Shown here piece by piece: positions 4,084 to 12,596 of a stretch of 64,000 nucleotides of DNA. Numbering within the stretch: position 1 is the first letter of the stretch; each line of letters starts with the position of its first letter. The translations under genes and the position numbers were made by a program. Source of the DNA: Azospirillum baldaniorum (GTDB lineage: Bacteria > Pseudomonadota > Alphaproteobacteria > Azospirillales > Azospirillaceae); assembly GCF_003119195.2 (NCBI RefSeq), contig NZ_CP022253.1, positions 2,613,001 through 2,677,000 on the forward strand. Reading direction: 5' to 3'. A model generated the notes under the pieces. The model did no database searches and was not told the DNA's origin. It worked only from the letters and a program-made list of their open reading frames with translations.

Positions 4084-4893
4084 TCAATCTCCGCCCCGAG
4101 GCTGCTCCAAGCGGGGCACGCCGAAATCGGCGAGAATGGCGTCGATGGCCGCGCGGTTCCGATCCAGCGCGCCACTGACAAGGTCATGGAACGCCCGGTC
4201 CCCGCGCCGCAGCCCCATGGAGATGTCGAAGGCCATGGGAAACAGCGGGCCTTCGGCGGGCGGCGCGACCGGGGTGAGAGCCAGCGGAACCGGCTGACGA
4301 CCGGCGTAGTAGCCGGCAACCGGCCCCCAGACGATGGCAACGTCCACTGCCCCGCTGGACACCGCCTCCACGATGCCCGCCGCCCCGTCATCACGGCTGT
4401 AGTCGCCGTAAACCATGTAGCCGCGCACGTTGTCGACAATGCCCCGCCGCGTCAGCGCGTGCGCCGGCGGCGTGTTGGCGAAGTCGTCGCCGATCATCTG
4501 CACGCCGATGCGCAGGCTCCGCAGGCGCGGGTCGTCGAAAGAGGTTATGACCGGCCCGTCCTGCGCCTTCGCGACGAACACATAGCCGGAGCGGTAATAG
4601 GGGGCTGTGGTGGACACCATCTCCAGGCCGCTCGGCACGCCGGGGATGAGGTCGCACAGCCCCTCCTTCAACGTGTTGCGAATGAAGCCGCGCCGTTGCG
4701 GCCACCATGTGTAGGCGACCGGAACGCCGAGGTCGGCGGCCAGAAGCTCCACGATCCTGTTCTCGAACCCCTCGCGACGCTCGTTGGAGAAGGGAAGGTT
4801 GTTCGGGTCGGCGCAGACGCGCAGTTCCTGGATGGGGCCGGCGCCGGCGGGTCCCGTGAGCAGCAGGCACAGCGCGAGGACCGTCCGGAACAT
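4084..4893 (-). CDS. Quinoprotein-dehydrogenase-associated periplasmic binding protein (MoxJ/XoxJ type)
   Basis: Exported solute-binding-fold protein of 269 residues from the ATG at 4891-4893. The signal peptide is MFRTVLALCLLLTGPAGAGP, then RVCADPNNLPFSNERREGFE, typical of the family that accompanies PQQ methanol/ethanol dehydrogenases. Further family traits are WWPQRRGFIRNTLKEGLCDL and the TTAPYYRSGYVFV segment. MoxJ/XoxJ proteins are thought to help load or activate the quinoprotein rather than serve an ABC importer, and no ABC permease or ATPase is nearby. It is the last gene of the PQQ-dehydrogenase/oxidase operon, 11 bp after a cytochrome c gene. A role in activating the dehydrogenase at 9799-11631 is inferred. 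Confidence 0.85.
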   Translation of the reverse strand: MFRTVLALCLLLTGPAGAGPIQELRVCADPNNLPFSNERREGFENRIVELLAADLGVPVAYTWWPQRRGFIRNTLKEGLCDLIPGVPSGLEMVSTTAPYYRSGYVFVAKAQDGPVITSFDDPRLRSLRIGVQMIGDDFANTPPAHALTRRGIVDNVRGYMVYGDYSRDDGAAGIVEAVSSGAVDVAIVWGPVAGYYAGRQPVPLALTPVAPPAEGPLFPMAFDISMGLRRGDRAFHDLVSGALDRNRAAIDAILADFGVPRLEQPRGGD

Positions 4894-4904
4894 CCCCAAC
4901 CCCC

Positions 4905-5318
4905 TCACTTCAAGGTGTAGAGAAAGGCCGCGATGTGCCGCGCGTCCTCCTCGCTCACGCCCAGGGACGGCATGGCGGTTTTCGGGTCGACGCCCTGCGG
5001 ATCGCGGAGCCACAGGACCAGATTGTCGGGTGTGTTCTGAAGCACCCCCGCCACATAGACCCGGTTGGCGATGCCGCCGAGCGGCGGACCGACGACGCCG
5101 TTGGCCCGCTGCACGCCCGGAATGCTGTGACAGGACCCGCAGCCGTAGCGCAGCACCGCCTCCCGCCCCGCGGACGGGGAGCCGCCGGTGAGGTCCGCGG
5201 CCCGCCGTTCCAGCTCCCACCGCTGGTCCTCCCAGGCATAGGCGGCGATCCCGGCGGCGCTCAGCGCCAGCAGCGCGGACACCACAGCGACGGAACGCAA
5301 GGAGAGGGTCGCGATCAT
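4905..5318 (-). CDS. Membrane-anchored or periplasmic c-type cytochrome
   Basis: Small monoheme cytochrome c, 137 residues. The N-terminus (MIATLSLRSVAVVSALLALS) is an uncleaved anchor or signal peptide. The heme site is YGCGSCHSIPG, the GPPL turn follows, and the distal Met is in TAMPSLG. The start ATG at 5316-5318 overlaps the stop of the preceding small membrane gene (ATGA), so translation is probably coupled. In this operon it probably carries electrons between the PQQ dehydrogenase and the oxidase, or serves as an extra subunit of the oxidase. Its true partner is not known from sequence. Confidence 0.88.
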   Translation of the reverse strand: MIATLSLRSVAVVSALLALSAAGIAAYAWEDQRWELERRAADLTGGSPSAGREAVLRYGCGSCHSIPGVQRANGVVGPPLGGIANRVYVAGVLQNTPDNLVLWLRDPQGVDPKTAMPSLGVSEEDARHIAAFLYTLK

Positions 5319-5668
5319 CGCTCGCATCCCGTCAGGAACACGGCCGCGAGCGCCTGCGCCAGAATCACCAGGATGAAGAAGGCGGCGGTTCCGGCGCTGA
5401 GCCCCGCGACGAAACGGCGGTTGCCGGGATCGGAGTCCCAAGCCCGCCCTTTCCCAGGCTGGCGGGCGCGCCAGGAGACGAATCCGGCGACCGCCGTGGC
5501 CGCAGCCAGCAGCAGTCCCAGCGCCACCGCCGGCCAGCCGCTGCTCTGCGCGCAGGTCCAGGGCACGAGGGCGCTGCCCCCCTGCTGTTGCAGGAAGGCG
5601 GCCACCGGGCCGGTGGCAAGCCCGGCCCAGATGCCGAAACGCCGTGTGCTGTGCTCGGCGGACGGCAT
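5315..5668 (-). CDS. Small membrane protein of the oxidase operon
   Basis: 117-residue protein with about three hydrophobic segments (around residues 10-25, 48-65 and 85-108), the last ending FLTGCER at the C-terminus. It has a good ribosome site (GAGGAGA) before the ATG at 5666-5668. It sits 9 bp after subunit III and overlaps the next cytochrome gene by 4 bp, so it belongs to the oxidase transcription unit. No family is recognised. By position it could be a small accessory subunit or assembly factor of the heme-copper oxidase; this is inference only. Confidence 0.75.
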   Translation of the reverse strand: MPSAEHSTRRFGIWAGLATGPVAAFLQQQGGSALVPWTCAQSSGWPAVALGLLLAAATAVAGFVSWRARQPGKGRAWDSDPGNRRFVAGLSAGTAAFFILVILAQALAAVFLTGCER

Positions 5669-5677
5669 GGCGTCTCC

Positions 5678-6286
5678 TCACGCGAACCGTGGGACGAGGT
5701 AGAGCAGCGCGTAGATGGGAACCCAGGCGCCGACCACGAAGTTCCAATACAGGGCGTTGTCGGTGACGTCGCCCATGCGCCGGGGGTCCTTGCCGTGCCT
5801 GGTGAGCATCAGGACGGCCAGCACCGCCGTGTCGCCCACGTCGGTCAGCAGGTGAACGGTGTGCAGGCCGAGGATCGTCCAGAGGATGGAGCCGTAGGCG
5901 TTGCTGTCCCACAGCGCGTTCAGCACCGTGAACTCGAACCAGCGGATGCCCAGCGTGACGAGACCGACCGCCAGCATCACCAGCACGGCGCGGCGCGTGC
6001 CGCGCAGGTCCGATGCCTCGCCCACCCGCTTGGCCCAGACGTTGGGAACCAGACTCAGCAGGAGAGCCGCGGTCATCAGCGTGCCCCAGGTCATATCGGG
6101 CGGGGGCATGCCCGGCGGCCAATGCCGGAACTGCATCATGATGTAGAGGTAGGTGAAGCCGGCTAGCACGAAGGCGAAGCCCTCGATCAGCATGAAGCCC
6201 ATCGTGCCCCACCAGGTCAGGGTGCTCGGCCCGTGGCCGTGGGTGGGCAGGTCGGACACGTCTCGGACGAAATGCCGCTCGCTCAT
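5678..6286 (-). CDS. coxC: Cytochrome c oxidase subunit III (heme-copper oxidase)
   Basis: 202-residue polytopic protein with about five membrane segments, the short form of subunit III found in caa3-type and bacterial oxidases. Recognisable stretches are GTMGFMLIEGFAFVLAGFTY at the start and TVLNALWDSNAYGSILWTI with the following LHTVHLL helix. The ATG at 6284-6286 overlaps the subunit I stop (ATGA), so the start is well fixed. It supports stability and proton uptake of the oxidase core. Confidence 0.92.
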   Translation of the reverse strand: MSERHFVRDVSDLPTHGHGPSTLTWWGTMGFMLIEGFAFVLAGFTYLYIMMQFRHWPPGMPPPDMTWGTLMTAALLLSLVPNVWAKRVGEASDLRGTRRAVLVMLAVGLVTLGIRWFEFTVLNALWDSNAYGSILWTILGLHTVHLLTDVGDTAVLAVLMLTRHGKDPRRMGDVTDNALYWNFVVGAWVPIYALLYLVPRFA

Positions 6287-8151
6287 GATTCCACCACCGG
6301 TTCCGGAGGGGTGTGGCGCCGCTTCGGCCAGAACCAGCCGACCAGCCCGACCGCCAGCGGCACCGCCCCCCAGACCAGCGCCCATGGCGTGAAGATCGAA
6401 CCGATGAACAGCACCGTCACCGCCAGGGCGGACAGCAGCGGCCAGATGGTCGGGCGTGGCGAGGGCTCCCGCAGGTCGGGATGCGCGTCCAGGACGGTGG
6501 TCAGCAATACCTCGCGCTCCTCCACCCGCAGGCCGTGGACCATGCCGAGCGGTCCGGCCTTGTCCCACAGCGGCTCCAGCCCCTCTACGACGGGTATGTG
6601 GGCGAAGTTGTAGCTGGGCGGCGGCGAGGCGGTCGCCCACTCCAGCGTGCCGGCGTTCCACGGGTTCGGGCCGGCGATGCGGCCGCCGCGCAGGCTGACC
6701 AGCACGTTGACGAGGAACAGCGCCACGCTGGCCGCGATCAGCAGGGCGCCGAGCGTGGCCGTCAGGTTCAGGTCCGCCCAGCCCAGCTCCGCCGGGTAGG
6801 TGTAGACGCGGCGCGGCATGCCCATCATGCCCAGCAGATGCATGGGGAAGAAGGCGACGTTGAAGCCGATGAAGAACAGCCAGAAATTCCAGCGCCCCAA
6901 CCGTTCCCCCAGCATCCGGCCGGTGATCTTGGGAAACCAGAAATAGAAGGCCCCGAACAGCGGGAAGACCGCCCCGCCGATCAGCACGTAATGGAAATGC
7001 GCCACGACGAAATAGCTGTCGTGCACCTGGAGGTCGAAGGGGACGGAGGCCTGCATGACGCCGGTCAGCCCGCCCAGCACGAAGATAACGATGAAGCCCA
7101 CGATGAAGAGCAGCGGCACCGTCCATTGCGGCCGGCCGTCCCACAGGGTGGCGATCCAGCAGAAGATCTGGATGCCGCTGGGGATGGCGATCATCATGCT
7201 CGCCGCCGTGAAATAGCCGCTGGCGAGGTGCGGCAGGCCGGTCGCGAACATGTGGTGGACCCACAGCCCGAAGCCGAGAAAGGCGGTGGCGACCAGCGCC
7301 AGCACCATGGGCACGTGCCCGAACACCGGCCGCCGTGCCATGGCGGCGACGATGCTCGACACCATGCCGAGCGCCGGCAGGAAGATGATGTAGACCTCCG
7401 GATGACCGAAGAACCAGAACAGGTGCTGCCACAGCAGCGGGTCGCCGCCTTCCGCCGGGTTGAAGAACTGCGTGCTGACCAGCCGGTCCATGATCAGGAA
7501 GCTGCTGGCCAGCATCACCGCGGGCATGGCGAAGATGACCATGAAGGAGGTCACCAGCATCGACCAGACGAACAGCGGGATGCGGTTCAGGCCCATGCCC
7601 GGCGCGCGCATCTTGAAGACGGTGACGATGATCTCCACGGCGACGGCCAGGGCCGCCACTTCGGTGAAGGTGATCATCTGCGCCCAGAAGTCGGTGCGCT
7701 TGCCGGGCGAATATTCCGGACCGGCCAGCGGCACGTAGCTGAACCAGCCGGTCTCCGGCCCCGTGTTCATCAGGAAGGCGACGACGATCATCACCCCGCC
7801 GAACAGGTAGACCCAGTAGCTGAAGGCGTTCAGCCGCGGAAAGGCGATGTTGCGCGTCCCCACCATCAGCGGCACGAGATAGACCGCCATCGCCTCCATG
7901 ATCGGCACGGCGAACAGGAACATCATCGTCGTGCCGTGCATGGAGAAGAGCTGGTTGTAGCGGTCCGGCCCGACCAGCGTGTTTTCCGGCTGCGCCAGTT
8001 GCAGCCGCATCAGCAGGGCGAGGACGCCGCCCACCAGAAAGAAGACGAAGCCGGTGGCGATGTAGCGCCGCCCGATCCGCTTGTGGTCCACCGTGGTCAG
8101 CCACCCCCACAGCCCGGGCGGCGTGCCCCAGGTCCGCTCCAGCCGGCGCAT
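6283..8151 (-). CDS. coxA: Cytochrome c oxidase subunit I
   Basis: Catalytic subunit of a heme-copper oxidase, 622 residues from the ATG at 8149-8151. This start has AGGAGGA eight bases upstream; a start 23 codons earlier is open but lacks such a site. Diagnostic features are WLTTVDHKRIG near the N-terminus, the CuB/cross-linked Tyr motif FGHPEVYIIFLP, the second CuB histidine pair in WVHHMFATGLP, and the heme ligand region HDSYFVVAHFHYVLIGG. The enzyme reduces O2 to water and pumps protons across the inner membrane. It follows subunit II after 81 bp and overlaps subunit III. No heme A synthase or CtaG-type assembly gene is in the operon, so these must come from elsewhere. Confidence 0.96.
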   Translation of the reverse strand: MRRLERTWGTPPGLWGWLTTVDHKRIGRRYIATGFVFFLVGGVLALLMRLQLAQPENTLVGPDRYNQLFSMHGTTMMFLFAVPIMEAMAVYLVPLMVGTRNIAFPRLNAFSYWVYLFGGVMIVVAFLMNTGPETGWFSYVPLAGPEYSPGKRTDFWAQMITFTEVAALAVAVEIIVTVFKMRAPGMGLNRIPLFVWSMLVTSFMVIFAMPAVMLASSFLIMDRLVSTQFFNPAEGGDPLLWQHLFWFFGHPEVYIIFLPALGMVSSIVAAMARRPVFGHVPMVLALVATAFLGFGLWVHHMFATGLPHLASGYFTAASMMIAIPSGIQIFCWIATLWDGRPQWTVPLLFIVGFIVIFVLGGLTGVMQASVPFDLQVHDSYFVVAHFHYVLIGGAVFPLFGAFYFWFPKITGRMLGERLGRWNFWLFFIGFNVAFFPMHLLGMMGMPRRVYTYPAELGWADLNLTATLGALLIAASVALFLVNVLVSLRGGRIAGPNPWNAGTLEWATASPPPSYNFAHIPVVEGLEPLWDKAGPLGMVHGLRVEEREVLLTTVLDAHPDLREPSPRPTIWPLLSALAVTVLFIGSIFTPWALVWGAVPLAVGLVGWFWPKRRHTPPEPVVES

Positions 8152-8232
8152 GGTGTCCTCCTCAGCAAGGGAGGGGCCGTCGCGGAGTTCGGAGGAGGAG
8201 ACGCCATCCCTGGGACCCATGACGCCCCTCCT

Positions 8233-9261
8233 TCACTTCAGGCTGTCGAGGTAGGCGACGAGCGCCTGCAGGTCCGATGGCGGCACGCCCACCAGCGGCA
8301 TGTGGTTGCCGGGCTTGATGCGCTGCGGGTCGGCGATCCAGCCGGCGAGATTTCCCCGGTTGTACGGCAGGGCGCCCGCGGCGATGCTCCGCCGGCTTGC
8401 CAGATGCGTCAGGTCCGGCGCCACGGAGGCCGAGGCCGGCGTGCCGCGGATGCCATGGCACATCGTGCAGGCGGAGGTGAGGAACAGGGCCTGCCCACGC
8501 GCCTGCGCCTCGTCCGTGGGGGCGGGAGCGGGCGCCAGCTGCGCCTCCTTCCAGGCGTCGAACGCCGCTCGGGAGTGGACGATCACGTCCAGCGCCATGT
8601 GCGCGTGCTGAAGCCCGCAGAACTCCGCGCACTGGCCGCGGAAGGTCCCTTCGCGGTCGGCGGTCAGGAACAGTTCGTTGTCCCGGCCGGGGATCAGGTC
8701 CATCTTGCCGTGCAGGTTCGGAATCCACAGGCTGTGGATGACGTCAGCCGCCTTCAGCTTGACCCGCACCGGCACGCCGACCGGCAGGTGGATCTCGTTG
8801 GCCGTGGTGATGCTGCGGCTGGGGTCGTCGTTGGGATAGCGGACGGTCCACCACCACTGCTTCCCCTCCACTTCGACGACGACCTCCTCCCGGTTGGCGA
8901 GGTGGGTGAGGCTCTTGTCCACGGCGTAGCTCGCCGTGACGAAGACGAACAGGATCAGCACCGTGCCGGCGACCCACACGGCCAGCCCGTTGGTCAGCCG
9001 CCGCTCGCCCCCGGCCTGACGCGGCAGAGTTCCGCCCGGCTCCACCCAGCGGTGCCGCCGCGCCAGCGCCCACAGCAGCCAGAGCAGGACGACGGTATAG
9101 ACGAAGGCGCAGCCGGCGAGGAGAATCCACCCCATCACGCCGATCCGCGCGGCCTGCCCGCCCGCCGGGTCCAGCATGGATTGCGGGCCGGAGCAGGCGG
9201 TCAGGACGAGGAAGGGAACAACCCTCCCCGGTCTCGGCAAGGGAACGGGCGGCCCTCTCAT
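8233..9261 (-). CDS. coxB: Cytochrome c oxidase subunit II fused to cytochrome c (caa3 type)
   Basis: 342-residue fusion. N-terminal lipobox VLTAC (Cys about residue 23) suggests a lipid-anchored precursor, followed by two membrane helices. The cupredoxin domain carries the CuA ligands in GQCAEFCGLQHAHM, with the aromatic EGKQWWWTVRYPN electron-entry patch. The C-terminal ~95 residues form a cytochrome c domain with SACTMCHG and a Met in NHMPLVG. This fused form defines caa3-type oxidases, which can take electrons directly from soluble cytochrome c. The ATG at 9259-9261 overlaps the stop of the cytochrome lipoprotein gene. Confidence 0.95.
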   Translation of the reverse strand: MRGPPVPLPRPGRVVPFLVLTACSGPQSMLDPAGGQAARIGVMGWILLAGCAFVYTVVLLWLLWALARRHRWVEPGGTLPRQAGGERRLTNGLAVWVAGTVLILFVFVTASYAVDKSLTHLANREEVVVEVEGKQWWWTVRYPNDDPSRSITTANEIHLPVGVPVRVKLKAADVIHSLWIPNLHGKMDLIPGRDNELFLTADREGTFRGQCAEFCGLQHAHMALDVIVHSRAAFDAWKEAQLAPAPAPTDEAQARGQALFLTSACTMCHGIRGTPASASVAPDLTHLASRRSIAAGALPYNRGNLAGWIADPQRIKPGNHMPLVGVPPSDLQALVAYLDSLK

Positions 9262-9827
9262 GGCCCGCGTCCTTCCGACGACGGAGAGGCCACGCCACCC
9301 GGCTTCGGTGGGGTCACGGGCTGGTTCTGCTCGCCCGGCGTGACGGCCATGTGATCGTCGCGGCCGGGCGCGACGTCCTTGCGGACCTCGCGCTGCATGG
9401 AGCGGACATAAGCGGCGATCTGCCACAATTGCTGGTCGGGGATCTTGTTGCGGAAGGACGGCATGCCGTTGGGCCGCCCCTCGACGATGGTCGCGGCGAT
9501 GTTCTCCAGCTCCCCGCCGTATATCCACACCGCGTCCATCAGCGGCGGTCCGATGTCGCCGCCGCCGTGGGCGTGGCAGCCCGAGCAGTTGAACCATTCG
9601 AACAGGCGCTTGCCTTCCGAGACGTGGTAGGCGTTGCCCTCATATTCCCGCCTCTGCGGGGGAGGTGGGCTGGGAGCGCCGGCGTAGAGCGTGCCCTGCA
9701 CGATGGCGCCGGGCTTGACCTCCCCCACCGGCTCGCCACGGTAGCTGCGCTCCTCCCGCTCGCAGGCGGCGAGCAGCAGGGCGCCGAGCAGGGCGAGGCT
9801 AACGGCGCTGCGGGAGAGCGAAGACAT
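9258..9827 (-). CDS. Cytochrome c lipoprotein, probable electron acceptor of the PQQ dehydrogenase
   Basis: 189 residues, with lipobox LLLAAC (Cys about residue 22), then a Pro-rich linker and a single heme site NCSGCHAHGGGDIGPP with distal Met in NGMPSFRNKIP. The C-terminal ~35 residues are Pro/Gln-rich and probably disordered. The start (ATG 9825-9827, preceded by GGGAGGGATG) lies 29 bp inside the 3' end of the PQQ dehydrogenase gene. It is the first product after the dehydrogenase, so it is the likely direct electron acceptor that relays electrons to the caa3 oxidase next door. The function is inferred from position and heme motif. Confidence 0.88.
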   Translation of the reverse strand: MSSLSRSAVSLALLGALLLAACEREERSYRGEPVGEVKPGAIVQGTLYAGAPSPPPPQRREYEGNAYHVSEGKRLFEWFNCSGCHAHGGGDIGPPLMDAVWIYGGELENIAATIVEGRPNGMPSFRNKIPDQQLWQIAAYVRSMQREVRKDVAPGRDDHMAVTPGEQNQPVTPPKPGGVASPSSEGRGP

Positions 9828-11631
9828 AGAGCATCCCTCCCTTGGTGGTCCGCTGCGGCAGGTCGGAGACGGCGTTGACGAAGCCCTTGGCGGCGCTGGC
9901 GTCGTGGGGGTCGAGATCGCCGGCCACGATGGCGCCGGCCCAGCCGCCCACGCCCGACAGGATGGCGATGTACTGCCGCCCGTCGGGCCCGCGGTAGCTG
10001 ATCGGCTGCCCGATGATCCCGGACCCGGTTTTGAACCGCCACAGCAGCTCCCCGCTGCCGGCGTCCACCGCCTTGAACCACCCGTCCATGGTTCCGTAGA
10101 AGACGAGGCCGCCGGCGGTCGCCAGCGCACCGGACCACAGCGGCAAGTCCTCCTTGAGTTCCCAAACCTTCCTGCGCTGTGCGGGGTCCCAGGCGGTGAA
10201 GGTGCCGCGGTGGCCGCCGGGGCCGGCGTACATCTTGACGTTGGCGCCGACATAGGGCGTGCCGGCGATGTAGTTCGCCTCGACGCTCTCCCAATCCATG
10301 CACAGGTTGTTGTGCGGAATGTAGACGTTCCCGGTCTTCGGCGAGAAGGCGGACGGGTTCCAGTCCTTGGCGCCCGGCGCGGTCGGGCAGATGTCGCGCA
10401 CCACCTTGCCGACGCGCGGATGCTTCTCCTCGTTGTATTCAATCAGGCCGGTCTTCAGGTCCACGCCCTTGGTGCTGTTGGCCGGGAAATAGGGGTCGGC
10501 GGCCAGCACCTCCCCGCTGCTGCGGTCGATGACGTAGAGATAGCCGTTGCGCTCCGGCCGGATCAGCACCTTGCGGGGCTGCCCCTGCCAGGGCAGGTCG
10601 AGCAGAATCAGCTCGTTGATGCCGTCGTAGTCGTACAGATCGTGGGGCACCGCCTGATAGAACCAGCGGGCCTGCCCGGTATCGGGGTTGCGGGCGAAGA
10701 TGCCGCCGGTCCATTTGTTGTCGCCGGGCCTCTGCTCCGGGTTCCAGGGGCCGGGATTGCCGGTGCCGTGGTAGATCAGGTCAAGCTCGGGGTCGTAGCT
10801 GATCCAGCCCCAGACCGTGCCGCCGCCGATCTCCCAGGCGTTGGGCGGCCATGTGCCGACGCCGAGGTCCTTGCCCTTTTCCTTGTCGTAGAAGGGTTTG
10901 TAATCGTCCCCGATCAACACGTCCTGATCGGGGCCGGTGTTGTAGGCACGCCAGACAATCTTGCCCGTCCCGGCATCGAGCGCGGTGATCCAGCCGCGCA
11001 CCCCGAACTCCCCACCCGCGTTGCCGACCAGCACCTTCCCTTTCACCACCAGGGGCGCCATGGTCATGGTCTCGCCCTTGTTGATGTCGCCGAGCTTGGT
11101 GCGCCACACCTCCCTCCCCGTCTCCGCGTCCACGGCGACGGTCTGGGCGTCCAGCGTGTTGATGAAGATCCGGCCGTCGGCGAAGGCAGGCCCGCGGTTC
11201 ACGTAATCGCAGCAGGCGACCCCCTGCGCGGAGGCGGCCGGTCTGGGCTCGAACGTCCATTTGGCGGGAGCGCCGGGCTTGGTGAGGTCGAGAGCGTAGA
11301 GTTTGTTGGGATAGGGGGTCACCACATACATGGTGTCGTTCACCACCAGCGGTGCCGCCTCATGCCCGCGCACGACACCGGTGGAGAAGGTGAAGGAAAC
11401 CTGGAGGTCACGAACGGTGTTCGTGTCGATCTCGTCCAGTTCGCTGTAGCGGGTGCTGGTGTAGTTCTTGGCGGCCATCACCCAATTGCCATCGTCGGGC
11501 GGCGAGGCCGCCGGAGCGGCAATGGCTCTGGCGGGCACGCCCGGTTCCTGACCAAGCGCCGGAAAAACGGGGCCGGCCATTCCGGAGGCCATAAGCCAGA
11601 GAAGGATGAAGCACGGAGGCGATCGTCTCAA
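9799..11631 (-). CDS. PQQ-dependent alcohol dehydrogenase with lanthanide-type active-site Asp
   Basis: Periplasmic eight-bladed quinoprotein, 610 residues, signal peptide at the N-terminus ending near FPALGQ. It oxidises an alcohol to aldehyde using PQQ. Visible active-site features are the vicinal disulfide Cys140-Cys141 (VACCDYVNRG), Glu208 in GGEFGVRG, Asn291 in GTGNPGPWN and the catalytic Asp334 in LYDYDGINE. Residue 336, two after the catalytic Asp, is also Asp; this position is Asp in XoxF/PedH-type lanthanide enzymes and Ala or Ser in calcium enzymes. The tryptophan-docking motifs near the C-terminus (LSGVGGWAGAI) are present. There is no fused heme domain, so a separate cytochrome is needed, and one follows directly. 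First gene of the operon. Substrate (ethanol, other alcohols or methanol) is not decided by sequence. Confidence 0.92.
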   Translation of the reverse strand: MRRSPPCFILLWLMASGMAGPVFPALGQEPGVPARAIAAPAASPPDDGNWVMAAKNYTSTRYSELDEIDTNTVRDLQVSFTFSTGVVRGHEAAPLVVNDTMYVVTPYPNKLYALDLTKPGAPAKWTFEPRPAASAQGVACCDYVNRGPAFADGRIFINTLDAQTVAVDAETGREVWRTKLGDINKGETMTMAPLVVKGKVLVGNAGGEFGVRGWITALDAGTGKIVWRAYNTGPDQDVLIGDDYKPFYDKEKGKDLGVGTWPPNAWEIGGGTVWGWISYDPELDLIYHGTGNPGPWNPEQRPGDNKWTGGIFARNPDTGQARWFYQAVPHDLYDYDGINELILLDLPWQGQPRKVLIRPERNGYLYVIDRSSGEVLAADPYFPANSTKGVDLKTGLIEYNEEKHPRVGKVVRDICPTAPGAKDWNPSAFSPKTGNVYIPHNNLCMDWESVEANYIAGTPYVGANVKMYAGPGGHRGTFTAWDPAQRRKVWELKEDLPLWSGALATAGGLVFYGTMDGWFKAVDAGSGELLWRFKTGSGIIGQPISYRGPDGRQYIAILSGVGGWAGAIVAGDLDPHDASAAKGFVNAVSDLPQRTTKGGMLYVFALPQRR

Positions 11632-11834
11632 GATACGGGCCCCCCGAAAGGAATTCCCCAGTCCGGGAACCGTCAGCCAAGGGAAAAAGTTCCCTCGCTT
11701 GGGCCTTTTCGATCAAATTTCAGAGCAATTGATTTGAGAGAAAATTCATTGCCGCGGCCAAATCATAAAGCGGTCCATACAATGAATTTGCAGTGCAGAT
11801 TAAAATGATGTGAGGGAAAGGGTCGCCCACCACA

Positions 11835-11990
11835 TCATCTCAAGGCGTTCATGATTGCACGACCATCAATCTTCTCATCGCAAATCCGCCTGAACACGCA
11901 GTTGATGTTTTCCACCGGCTCAACCGAAGCGTAAACCTCCACTTTGCCGTCTCCAGCGAACGGCAAGGGGAGGTCAGACTGGCGACAAGC
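11835..11990 (-). pseudogene. Probable C-terminal remnant of a zinc-dependent alcohol dehydrogenase
   Basis: The last ~50 codons of the open frame ending at 11835 read ...GKVEVYASVEPVENIN, CVFRRICDEKIDGRAIM. This resembles the extreme C-terminus of medium-chain zinc alcohol dehydrogenases, where a 'PLExINxxFxRLxxGxIDGR' type segment closes the protein. No NAD- or zinc-binding part is present upstream; the frame runs into unrelated DNA and then the IS remnant. The match is short and made by eye, so it could be chance. If right, it is a decayed alcohol dehydrogenase next to the PQQ alcohol dehydrogenase operon. Confidence 0.35.
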
Positions 11991-12199
11991 GATGCGGCAT
12001 GGCAGGGCATTGGGCATGTCCACCAAGCCGTACCGCGGTGTCCGTTTTCCTGCCGGGATCTTCCGCAAGGCAGCTTCGGTGTCCCATTGCTCCGGCCTGG
12101 GCCTTGAGGCCGGACTCATAACCAATGGGCGACGGTTGCCACGATGTGGACGGCCACCTGACCCCCGGTCAGCAGGAAAGCGAGCAGCCGACCGCGCGG

Positions 12200-12323
12200 G
12201 ACGATCCCGCTGATCACACGGCGATCATCAACGCGGGGCTTGCCACGGGTGTCGCGCGGAAGTTGCGGCTCAAGCCGCCCAAACTGCTCCACCATCAACC
12301 AGAACTGACCGTCGCTCAGTACA
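12200..12323 (-). mobile_element. IS5-family transposase, N-terminal fragment
   Basis: Minus-strand translation gives LSDGQFWLMVEQFGRLEPQL then PRDTRGKPRVDDRRVISGI, the conserved start of IS5-family transposases (DUF4096-type domain: W..L.P.LP...GKPRVDDRRVISGI). After SGI the similarity stops and no DDE domain follows, so the gene is truncated and inactive. The preceding ~75 bp and the repeat at 12397-12536 are the upstream end of the element. Confidence 0.75.
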
Positions 12324-12396
12324 AAGCCCCTTTCCAGGACTTTGAATCCAACGATTCCATCCGCGAAAGTTCCTTTATGGGTGCGGACCCCAGGAG

Positions 12397-12536
12397 TGCA
12401 CCCACAAAGCGTTGACGGATAAGGCAAATCCTTGAACCGGGTCGGTTTGATCGTGGAAGCAGGGTCACGCCAGATTGGCTGAATTCAGCCTTTTCATTAC
12501 TTTAATAAGAATCAGTCTATCTGTGGACTGACATAG
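12397..12536. repeat. IS-end fragment, direct-repeat copy 2
   Basis: About 81% identical to 3864-4002 in the same orientation. It lies immediately upstream of the truncated IS5-type transposase, which identifies the repeat as an IS terminal region. The two copies bracket the whole PQQ dehydrogenase/oxidase operon. Confidence 0.7.
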
Positions 12537-12596
12537 TCTCATCAGACATCACCTACGCCCACCATGGCCGAGGGTCCCGGGGTTCTGCCCGGCTCG

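What the first reader, a model, noticed from the sequence alone, without database searches (positions are those of the whole stretch)
4084..11631. Self-contained alcohol-to-oxygen electron transport operon
One minus-strand operon encodes a PQQ alcohol dehydrogenase, a cytochrome c lipoprotein, a caa3-type oxidase (subunits II-cytochrome c, I, III), a small membrane protein, another cytochrome c and a MoxJ/XoxJ-type protein, with several 4 bp overlaps. Usually PQQ dehydrogenases feed a shared oxidase, so a dedicated oxidase in the same transcription unit suggests a private respiratory chain. The small 117-residue membrane protein has no known family.
Basis: partly seen in the sequence, partly recalled or inferred. 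Interest (0 to 1): 0.75.

Follow-up and report, generated by a model that had tools for sequence, protein, structure and literature searches.

The report
Lanthanide alcohol dehydrogenase with own oxidase
An Azospirillum operon makes a predicted rare-earth-dependent alcohol-burning enzyme together with an oxidase that can pass the electrons to oxygen; the gene arrangement is already known from soil bacteria, but the oxidase lacks the usual proton-uptake residues, which makes it worth testing.

Summary
In detail: eight tightly packed minus-strand genes, 11631-4084, in what is most likely an Azospirillum genome. The dehydrogenase carries the ligand set of a lanthanide-dependent XoxF methanol dehydrogenase. 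The arrangement is not new: xoxF3 clusters with CoxI-III, CtaG, cytochromes c, XoxG, XoxJ and a ~110-residue protein are in print (PMC10875860). Among the 80 closest loci kept, 62 of the 64 with at least 7 kb downstream have cox1 within 7 kb, across four phyla. 'Private chain' is only partly supported: found Cox1-first, 7 of 13 oxidase copies have no xoxF beside them, and four of these (plus one that has an xoxF-like gene) lie near an FdhF/YdeP-type oxidoreductase. The window also lacks the ctaG of most relatives opened. The least expected point is the oxidase itself. The K-channel lysine is glutamine in all 75 XoxF3-type Cox1 rows, the K-channel glutamate of subunit II is gone, the D-channel aspartate is non-acidic in 70 of 75, and a new glutamate (window E164) always accompanies the Lys-to-Gln change. 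A second, mostly XoxF-linked clade lacks the lysine and the gating glutamate. What this does to proton pumping is untested; K-channel loss has precedent in family A oxidases.

The parts
9799..11631 (-). XoxF-type PQQ methanol/alcohol dehydrogenase, 610 aa; metal ligands E208, N292, D334 and the lanthanide-type extra Asp D336; Cys140-Cys141 pair (roles of the residues recalled from XoxF/MxaF structures)
   Evidence: TIGR03075 648.6 bits; best solved relative 4mae, E 1e-198; same six residues in 79 of 80 loci
9258..9827 (-). mono-haem cytochrome c lipoprotein (LAAC at 19-22, CSGCH), the probable XoxG-like acceptor
   Evidence: PF13442, PF00034; weak MoxG match, 36.9 bits, below its cut-off of 147.8; motifs; found in 76 of 80 loci
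8233..9261 (-). oxidase subunit II with CuA-type motif (by eye) and fused cytochrome c (CTMCH), lipobox LTAC; lacks the LE..WT glutamate of canonical subunit II
   Evidence: PF00116, PF00034, CoxB 156 bits; motif count
6283..8151 (-). oxidase subunit I, 622 aa: haem/CuB His, Tyr254 and Glu252 kept; Q328 for K-channel Lys354, N101 for D-channel Asp124, V90 for Asn113, A167 for Ser193, E173 for Asn199, new E164 for Gly190 (P. denitrificans numbers)
   Evidence: CtaD_CoxA 734.1 bits; alignments; numbering checked on the 1ar1 alignment
5678..6286 (-). oxidase subunit III
   Evidence: PF00510 25.4 bits against cut-off 23.8
5315..5668 (-). 117-aa membrane protein predicted as three long helices; Cys39 and Cys115 conserved in the whole family found (53 of 53 aligned, 59 of 59 profile hits); probable oxidase accessory subunit or assembly protein
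   Evidence: AlphaFold2 helices 4-41, 45-68, 81-112, mean pLDDT 75; no PDB fold match at E <= 0.001
4905..5327 (-). mono-haem cytochrome c (CGSCH) with an N-terminal hydrophobic stretch, anchor or signal peptide (by eye)
   Evidence: PF00034, motif
4084..4893 (-). XoxJ/MoxJ-type periplasmic binding protein, presumed dehydrogenase maturation or activation factor
   Evidence: TIGR03871 295.1 bits, cut-off 212.15; found in 67 of 80 loci
11632..12596 (-). 965-bp intergenic stretch up to the next gene (a LysR-like reading frame, name by eye) that should hold the promoter; no sigma-70 consensus found

Best explanation
The operon is an XoxF3-type alcohol-to-oxygen module. XoxF, predicted to hold PQQ and a lanthanide, oxidises methanol or a related alcohol in the periplasm. 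Its electrons pass to the neighbouring cytochrome c lipoprotein and/or the second cytochrome c, then to the cytochrome c domain fused to subunit II, CuA and the haem-copper centre, where O2 is reduced. XoxJ activates the dehydrogenase, and the small three-helix protein belongs to the oxidase. The oxidase is of a divergent A-type lineage in which the canonical K channel is gone and the canonical D-channel entry is replaced; proton uptake must use another route, most simply one built around the new helix-IV glutamates E164 and E173 (helix number recalled). Shown: gene content, order, residues, conservation. Inferred: lanthanide use, substrate, electron path, proton route.
For: Gene families and motifs; XoxF ligand set in 79 of 80 loci; synteny in 62 of 64 loci with at least 7 kb downstream; published XoxF3 clusters of the same content; pqqC at C1:2049131, GSH-dependent formaldehyde dehydrogenase at C2:745462 and one RuBisCO-large-family gene at C5:868337 in the same genome; second XoxF without oxidase. 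Channel residues: K354 site Q in 75 of 75 XoxF3-type rows and 120 of 120 listed database relatives (the two sets may share records), E164 in the same rows, against K and G in 13 of 13 canonical rows.
Against: Oxidase copies with no xoxF beside them (7 of 13). The ctaG of most relatives opened is absent here, and the only PF09678 gene of the genome is at C5:457969, so assembly is not self-contained. The cluster is accessory: XoxF at 76% identity or more in 7 of 45 genomes of the genus. D-channel entry has Glu in 25 of 120, and Asp or Glu in 5 of 75 rows, so its loss is not universal. The XoxG match is weak. XoxF3 clade membership was not tested on a tree with named references.
Confidence: 0.7

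Rival explanations
1. General-purpose oxidase module that happens to sit beside xoxF: the oxidase takes electrons from any periplasmic cytochrome c donor, and XoxF electrons also reach the canonical aa3 or another oxidase.
For: 7 of 13 Cox1-first copies have no xoxF beside them. Near four of these (L155, L156, L157, L158) and near G277 (L162) lies an FdhF/YdeP-type oxidoreductase: TIGR01701 1189.3, 894, 878.5 and 951.6 bits in L155, L156, L158 and L162; the L157 protein is 97% identical to that of L156. The genome has five other PF00115 proteins.
Against: 62 of 64 XoxF-first loci with at least 7 kb downstream keep the oxidase; a cytochrome c is found in 76 and xoxJ in 67 of the 80 loci.
Confidence: 0.35
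2. Operon for formaldehyde or other aldehyde/alcohol detoxification or energy supply rather than methylotrophic growth.
For: The cluster is accessory within the genus, while a second XoxF (50-53% identical) is in 36 of 45 genomes. A formaldehyde dehydrogenase is present.
Against: No specific evidence; substrate cannot be read from sequence.
Confidence: 0.25
3. The altered channel residues do not matter: Gln328 and water replace Lys, E164/E173 rebuild a D-type channel, and the oxidase pumps normally.
For: E164 accompanies Q in 103 of 103 rows and is absent from the 24 others, which looks like compensation. The catalytic ligands and Glu252 are kept.
Against: Both ends of the K channel are gone. 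A passage of PMC8079940 calls the K-channel lysine essential; it says that mutants without it still make the first reduction of the oxidised state, and assigns one later proton to the K channel.
Confidence: 0.45

Closest known systems
XoxF3 gene clusters of Acidobacteria, Gemmatimonadetes and Verrucomicrobia (PMC10875860, passages; the cox/ctaG content of a few xoxF3 operons is credited there to an earlier mini-review, not seen)
   Same: XoxF with the lanthanide Asp, XoxG, XoxJ, CoxI-III, CytC and a ~110-aa protein after CoxIII
   Different: The window lacks CtaG in the cluster; host is Azospirillum; XoxJ is last rather than next to xoxF as in many relatives
PDB 4mae methanol dehydrogenase (XoxF2 of strain SolV, recalled)
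   Same: Ligands and Cys-Cys pair; best solved match, E 1e-198
   Different: Only the best of several XoxF structures; clade not shown
A1-type haem-copper oxygen reductases (1ar1, 1m56; definition in PMC3084760, passages)
   Same: Fold family, haem and CuB ligands, Tyr280, Glu278
   Different: K354, D124, N113, N199 and S193 all replaced; no K-channel Glu in subunit II
K-channel-less family A oxidases mentioned in PMC8239418 (passages, on a tree of mainly archaeal sequences)
   Same: Precedent for natural K-channel loss in family A
   Different: No XoxF link and no paired Gly-to-Glu change in the passages that I saw; its supplement was not seen

Membership tests
XoxF-type lanthanide methanol dehydrogenase | Extra Asp beside the catalytic Asp, plus Glu, Asn and Cys-Cys | tested here: met
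   E208, N292, D334, D336, C140-C141; 79 of 80 loci alike
XoxF-type lanthanide methanol dehydrogenase | Activity dependent on a lanthanide | not testable with these tools
   needs protein or growth assay
XoxF3 cluster (PMC10875860) | Co-localised CoxI-III, CytC, XoxG-like cytochrome, XoxJ, ~110-aa protein after CoxIII | tested here: met
   XoxG match is weak (36.9 bits)
XoxF3 cluster (PMC10875860) | CtaG in the cluster | tested here: not met
   no ctaG between the small protein and cytochrome c in the window, L007 and L024; present in L008, L011, L068 and others; sole PF09678 gene at C5:457969
XoxF3 clade | Placement with named XoxF3 sequences on a tree | not tested
   no named XoxF3 reference was fetched; filed by cluster content only
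A1-type haem-copper oxygen reductase | K channel Lys354, Thr351, Ser291, Tyr280 | tested here: not met
   Q328, S325, S265, Y254 (list from PMC3084760)
A1-type haem-copper oxygen reductase | D channel Asp124, Asn199, Asn113, Asn131, Tyr35, Ser134, Ser193, Glu278 | tested here: not met
   N101, E173, V90 and A167 replace four; N108, Y30, S111, E252 kept
caa3 oxidase | Cytochrome c fused to a CuA subunit II | tested here: met
   PF00116 + PF00034, CTMCH
caa3 oxidase | Haem A content | not testable with these tools
   needs spectroscopy

The most novel reading that the evidence does not exclude
XoxF-linked oxidases are a rewired class of family A oxidase. Two separate XoxF-associated clades have lost the canonical proton inputs: the XoxF3-type clade (K to Q, D-channel entry lost, Gly190 to Glu gained) and a second clade with Trp for the gating Glu278 and Ala/Ser/Thr/Gly for Lys354. 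Such an oxidase may pump few or no protons, or take protons by a new helix-IV route, trading energy yield for fast, unhindered disposal of high-potential alcohol electrons.
Probability: 0.3. Interest if true: 0.75.

Novelty: new variant of a known kind. Interest (0 to 1): 0.45.

Why it matters
XoxF3 was the most abundant XoxF in the weathered-granite and soil set of PMC10875860 (340 of 411 sequences), which says that no biochemical data on it are available. If its companion oxidase takes up protons by a non-canonical route, energy-yield estimates for such soil methylotrophs would change. The K and D channels are usually treated as essential for A-type oxidases, so a natural lineage without their key residues, found in four phyla and with a perfectly paired Gly-to-Glu substitution, gives a concrete site to test how much of the channel architecture is needed.

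Tried and rejected
(1) Exclusive oxidase: rejected by the Cox1-first counts. (2) Small protein as a known family: of 53 members scanned no Pfam family matched more than 4 at E <= 0.01; one member matched PRA1 (E 6.3e-4), a eukaryotic vesicle-traffic family by recall, perhaps related to the 'vesicle-mediated transport' similarity reported in PMC10875860. My model found no PDB match at E <= 0.001 (mean pLDDT 75, so weak evidence). A viral-contig scan found none. (3) Promoter/terminator scan: no sigma-70 match; nine terminator-like sites against 4.9 expected, none decisive. (4) Paper searches for K/D-channel features with caa3, coxN or XoxF and for XoxF or xoxF3 with oxidase or cluster terms: in their listings and in the passages opened I saw no description of altered proton channels in XoxF-linked oxidases. 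The library is open-access only, several listings were capped, and I read passages, not whole papers. (5) Mantel test does not separate co-transfer from common species descent; nearest neighbours agree in only 29 of 62. (6) The automatic gene call was poor in L160, so its neighbours are unknown apart from the absence of an XoxF hit. (7) The genome searches scored at most three or four candidates per genome, so absence there is only at that depth; the local tblastn covers the fetched flanks.
Full report
WHAT IS THERE. The window is G000:C1:2613001-2677000 of a 7.68-Mb genome. The genome is most likely Azospirillum: the XoxF is 96% identical to A. tabaci and 95.9% to an A. argentinense plasmid, and the Cox1 98% to A. 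argentinense. Eight genes run from 11631 to 4084 on the minus strand with junctions between a 29-nt overlap and an 81-nt gap. The dehydrogenase is XoxF-type: best solved relative 4mae, with E208, N292, D334, D336 and C140-C141; 79 of the 80 loci fetched with it carry the same six residues and one (L062) does not.

THE ARRANGEMENT IS CONSERVED AND KNOWN. Of 270 relatives found by the scan, the best 80 were kept, so this is a sample of close relatives. Sixty-four have at least 7 kb downstream of xoxF, and 62 of these have a cox1 (tblastn above 300 bits) within 7 kb; the two without are L012 and L065. Of 16 with less flank, four show such a cox1. xoxJ is found in 67 of 80 and the first cytochrome c in 76 of 80. 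Hosts include Acidobacteriota, Gemmatimonadota, Verrucomicrobiota and alpha-, beta- and gamma-proteobacteria by record title. The commonest order is xoxF-xoxJ-cytc-cox2c-cox1-cox3-small protein-ctaG-cytc; the window and L007, L024 have no ctaG and carry xoxJ last (ctaG was read only in the handful of loci opened and). [quoted passage not shown] I therefore file this as a XoxF3-type cluster by content; the clade itself was not tested on a tree.

HOW PRIVATE IS IT. Starting from Cox1 instead, copies of at least 57% identity other than the window's own are 3 in 289 class genomes (G277, G071, G095) and 10 in 398 phylum genomes; the G071 contig is the same record as L019. A PQQ dehydrogenase lies beside G277, G071, G623, G641, G618 and one of the two G395 copies; the G277 one has lost the ligands (L162: D, H, A, G). 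The other seven copies (G095, G540, G348, G330, G440, G632 and the second of G395) have none: nothing at E <= 1e-100 (G095) or 1e-170 on that contig (at most three or four candidates per genome were scored), and no tblastn hit to XoxF at 1e-10 in the 16-18 kb fetched around each (L155-L161). G395 does have xoxF on other contigs. In L155, L156, L158 and L162 (G540, G348, G440, G277) a TIGR01701 FdhF/YdeP-type oxidoreductase lies nearby, and L157 (G330) has one 97% identical to that of L156. So XoxF3 nearly always brings the oxidase, but the oxidase does not always need XoxF. In the same genome a second XoxF-type dehydrogenase (52%) has a MoxJ-like neighbour and no oxidase hit in 18 kb. In the genus, XoxF of at least 76% identity is in 7 of 45 genomes and a 50-53% type in 36 of 45.

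THE OXIDASE. I aligned 127 Cox1 rows (126 found in loci plus the window; the window's own copy L002 is among them, so it counts twice). Numbering follows P. denitrificans 1ar1, checked through the genome's own canonical aa3, and the channel lists come from PMC3084760. At Lys354, 13 canonical rows have K, 103 have Q, 11 have A, S, T or G. At Gly190 all 103 Q rows have Glu and all 24 others Gly. Grouped: 75 XoxF3-type rows (57% identity or more) have Q 75 of 75 and E164 75 of 75; Asp124 is N 52, S 12, A 4, T 2, D 4, E 1; Asn113 is replaced in all; Asn199 is E in 42. The 120 best-listed of 7,996 database relatives (some may be the same records) have Q 120, E164 120, and at Asp124 N 68, E 25, A 14, S 12, I 1. 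The 28 more distant Q rows, among them this genome's I+III fusion at C7, keep Asp124. A third group of 11 rows keeps Asp124 (11) and Asn113 (10) but has Trp for Glu278; in 8 of these 11 a XoxF gene is near (L061, L074, L079, L170, L171, L172, G140, G137), in G584, G246 and G586 none was found on the contig. Haem and CuB histidines and Tyr280 are kept in all 127 rows; Glu278 is kept in 12 of 13 canonical and all 103 Q rows. In subunit II, the LE..WT glutamate motif is in 9 of 127 rows, all canonical, and in none of the other 118. A quick tree with these columns left out puts the canonical rows on one side of a branch (SH-aLRT 99), the Trp clade at 100, the distant Q clade at 100 and the XoxF3-type clade of 74 rows, four of them keeping Asp124, at 94 (midpoint root, no bootstrap). 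Most simply, Lys-to-Gln predates the XoxF3 link, and loss of the D-channel entry came later.

MECHANISM. Electrons: XoxF to cytochrome c to the fused cytochrome c, CuA and the haem-copper centre. This is inference from gene families. Protons: PMC8079940 (passages) states that A-family oxidases take chemical protons by D and K channels and pump protons through D, and that mutants lacking the lysine still make the first reduction. The operon's oxidase must therefore either use a new path (E164, E173 on the same helix are the candidates) or work with lower pumping. PMC8239418 (passages) mentions seven independent K-channel losses in family A under one hypothesis, so the loss alone is not unheard of.

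THE SMALL PROTEIN. A profile search found 59 such ORFs in the loci searched (L007-L086 and L155-L174), including loci without xoxF; two cysteine columns are filled by Cys in 59 of 59. Fifty-three sequences were aligned, the window's plus 52 of the 59 (left out: L020, L061, L074, L079, L161, L163, L172); Cys39 and Cys115 are the invariant columns. The model has three long helices and no PDB match at E <= 0.001. It tracks the oxidase rather than XoxF, which favours an oxidase subunit or copper/disulfide-related assembly role (inference).

CONTEXT. The genome also holds pqqC, one CtaG elsewhere, a GSH-dependent formaldehyde dehydrogenase over its cut-off and one RuBisCO-large-family gene, so methanol oxidation to CO2 is plausible but not shown.

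Noticed in passing
L162:9846-11567 (G277): XoxF-like gene beside the oxidase has lost the metal and catalytic ligands (D, H, A, G), and one search counted one stop inside the match: a dead or repurposed dehydrogenase.
   Followed up: partly
L062:10001-11743 (Microvirga calopogonii): XoxF copy with Q, S, A in place of the Glu, Asn and catalytic Asp.
   Followed up: no
L155, L156, L157, L158, L162: Copies of the oxidase lie near an FdhF/YdeP-type molybdopterin oxidoreductase (TIGR01701), in the first four without xoxF; a cytochrome c with several CxxCH (by eye) is also near in L156 and L158.
   Followed up: partly
L061, L074, L079, L170, L171, L172 and others: Second oxidase clade, mostly XoxF-linked, with HPWVY in place of HPEVY and no K-channel Lys.
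   Followed up: partly
L167 (G000:C7:551000-570000): Another oxidase of this genome, in a 1037-aa open frame (I+III fusion, name by length and eye), also has Gln for the K-channel Lys and Glu at the 164 site, but keeps the D-channel Asp.
   Followed up: partly
L164:9847-10638 (G623): An HbpS-like haem-related gene lies between ctaG and xoxF in a cluster with reversed order (cox before xoxF).
   Followed up: no
L060: A contig labelled Gemmatimonadetes whose XoxF and Cox1 are both nearest to a Burkholderiales contig, L044 (0.87 and 0.92): recent transfer or a binning error.
   Followed up: no
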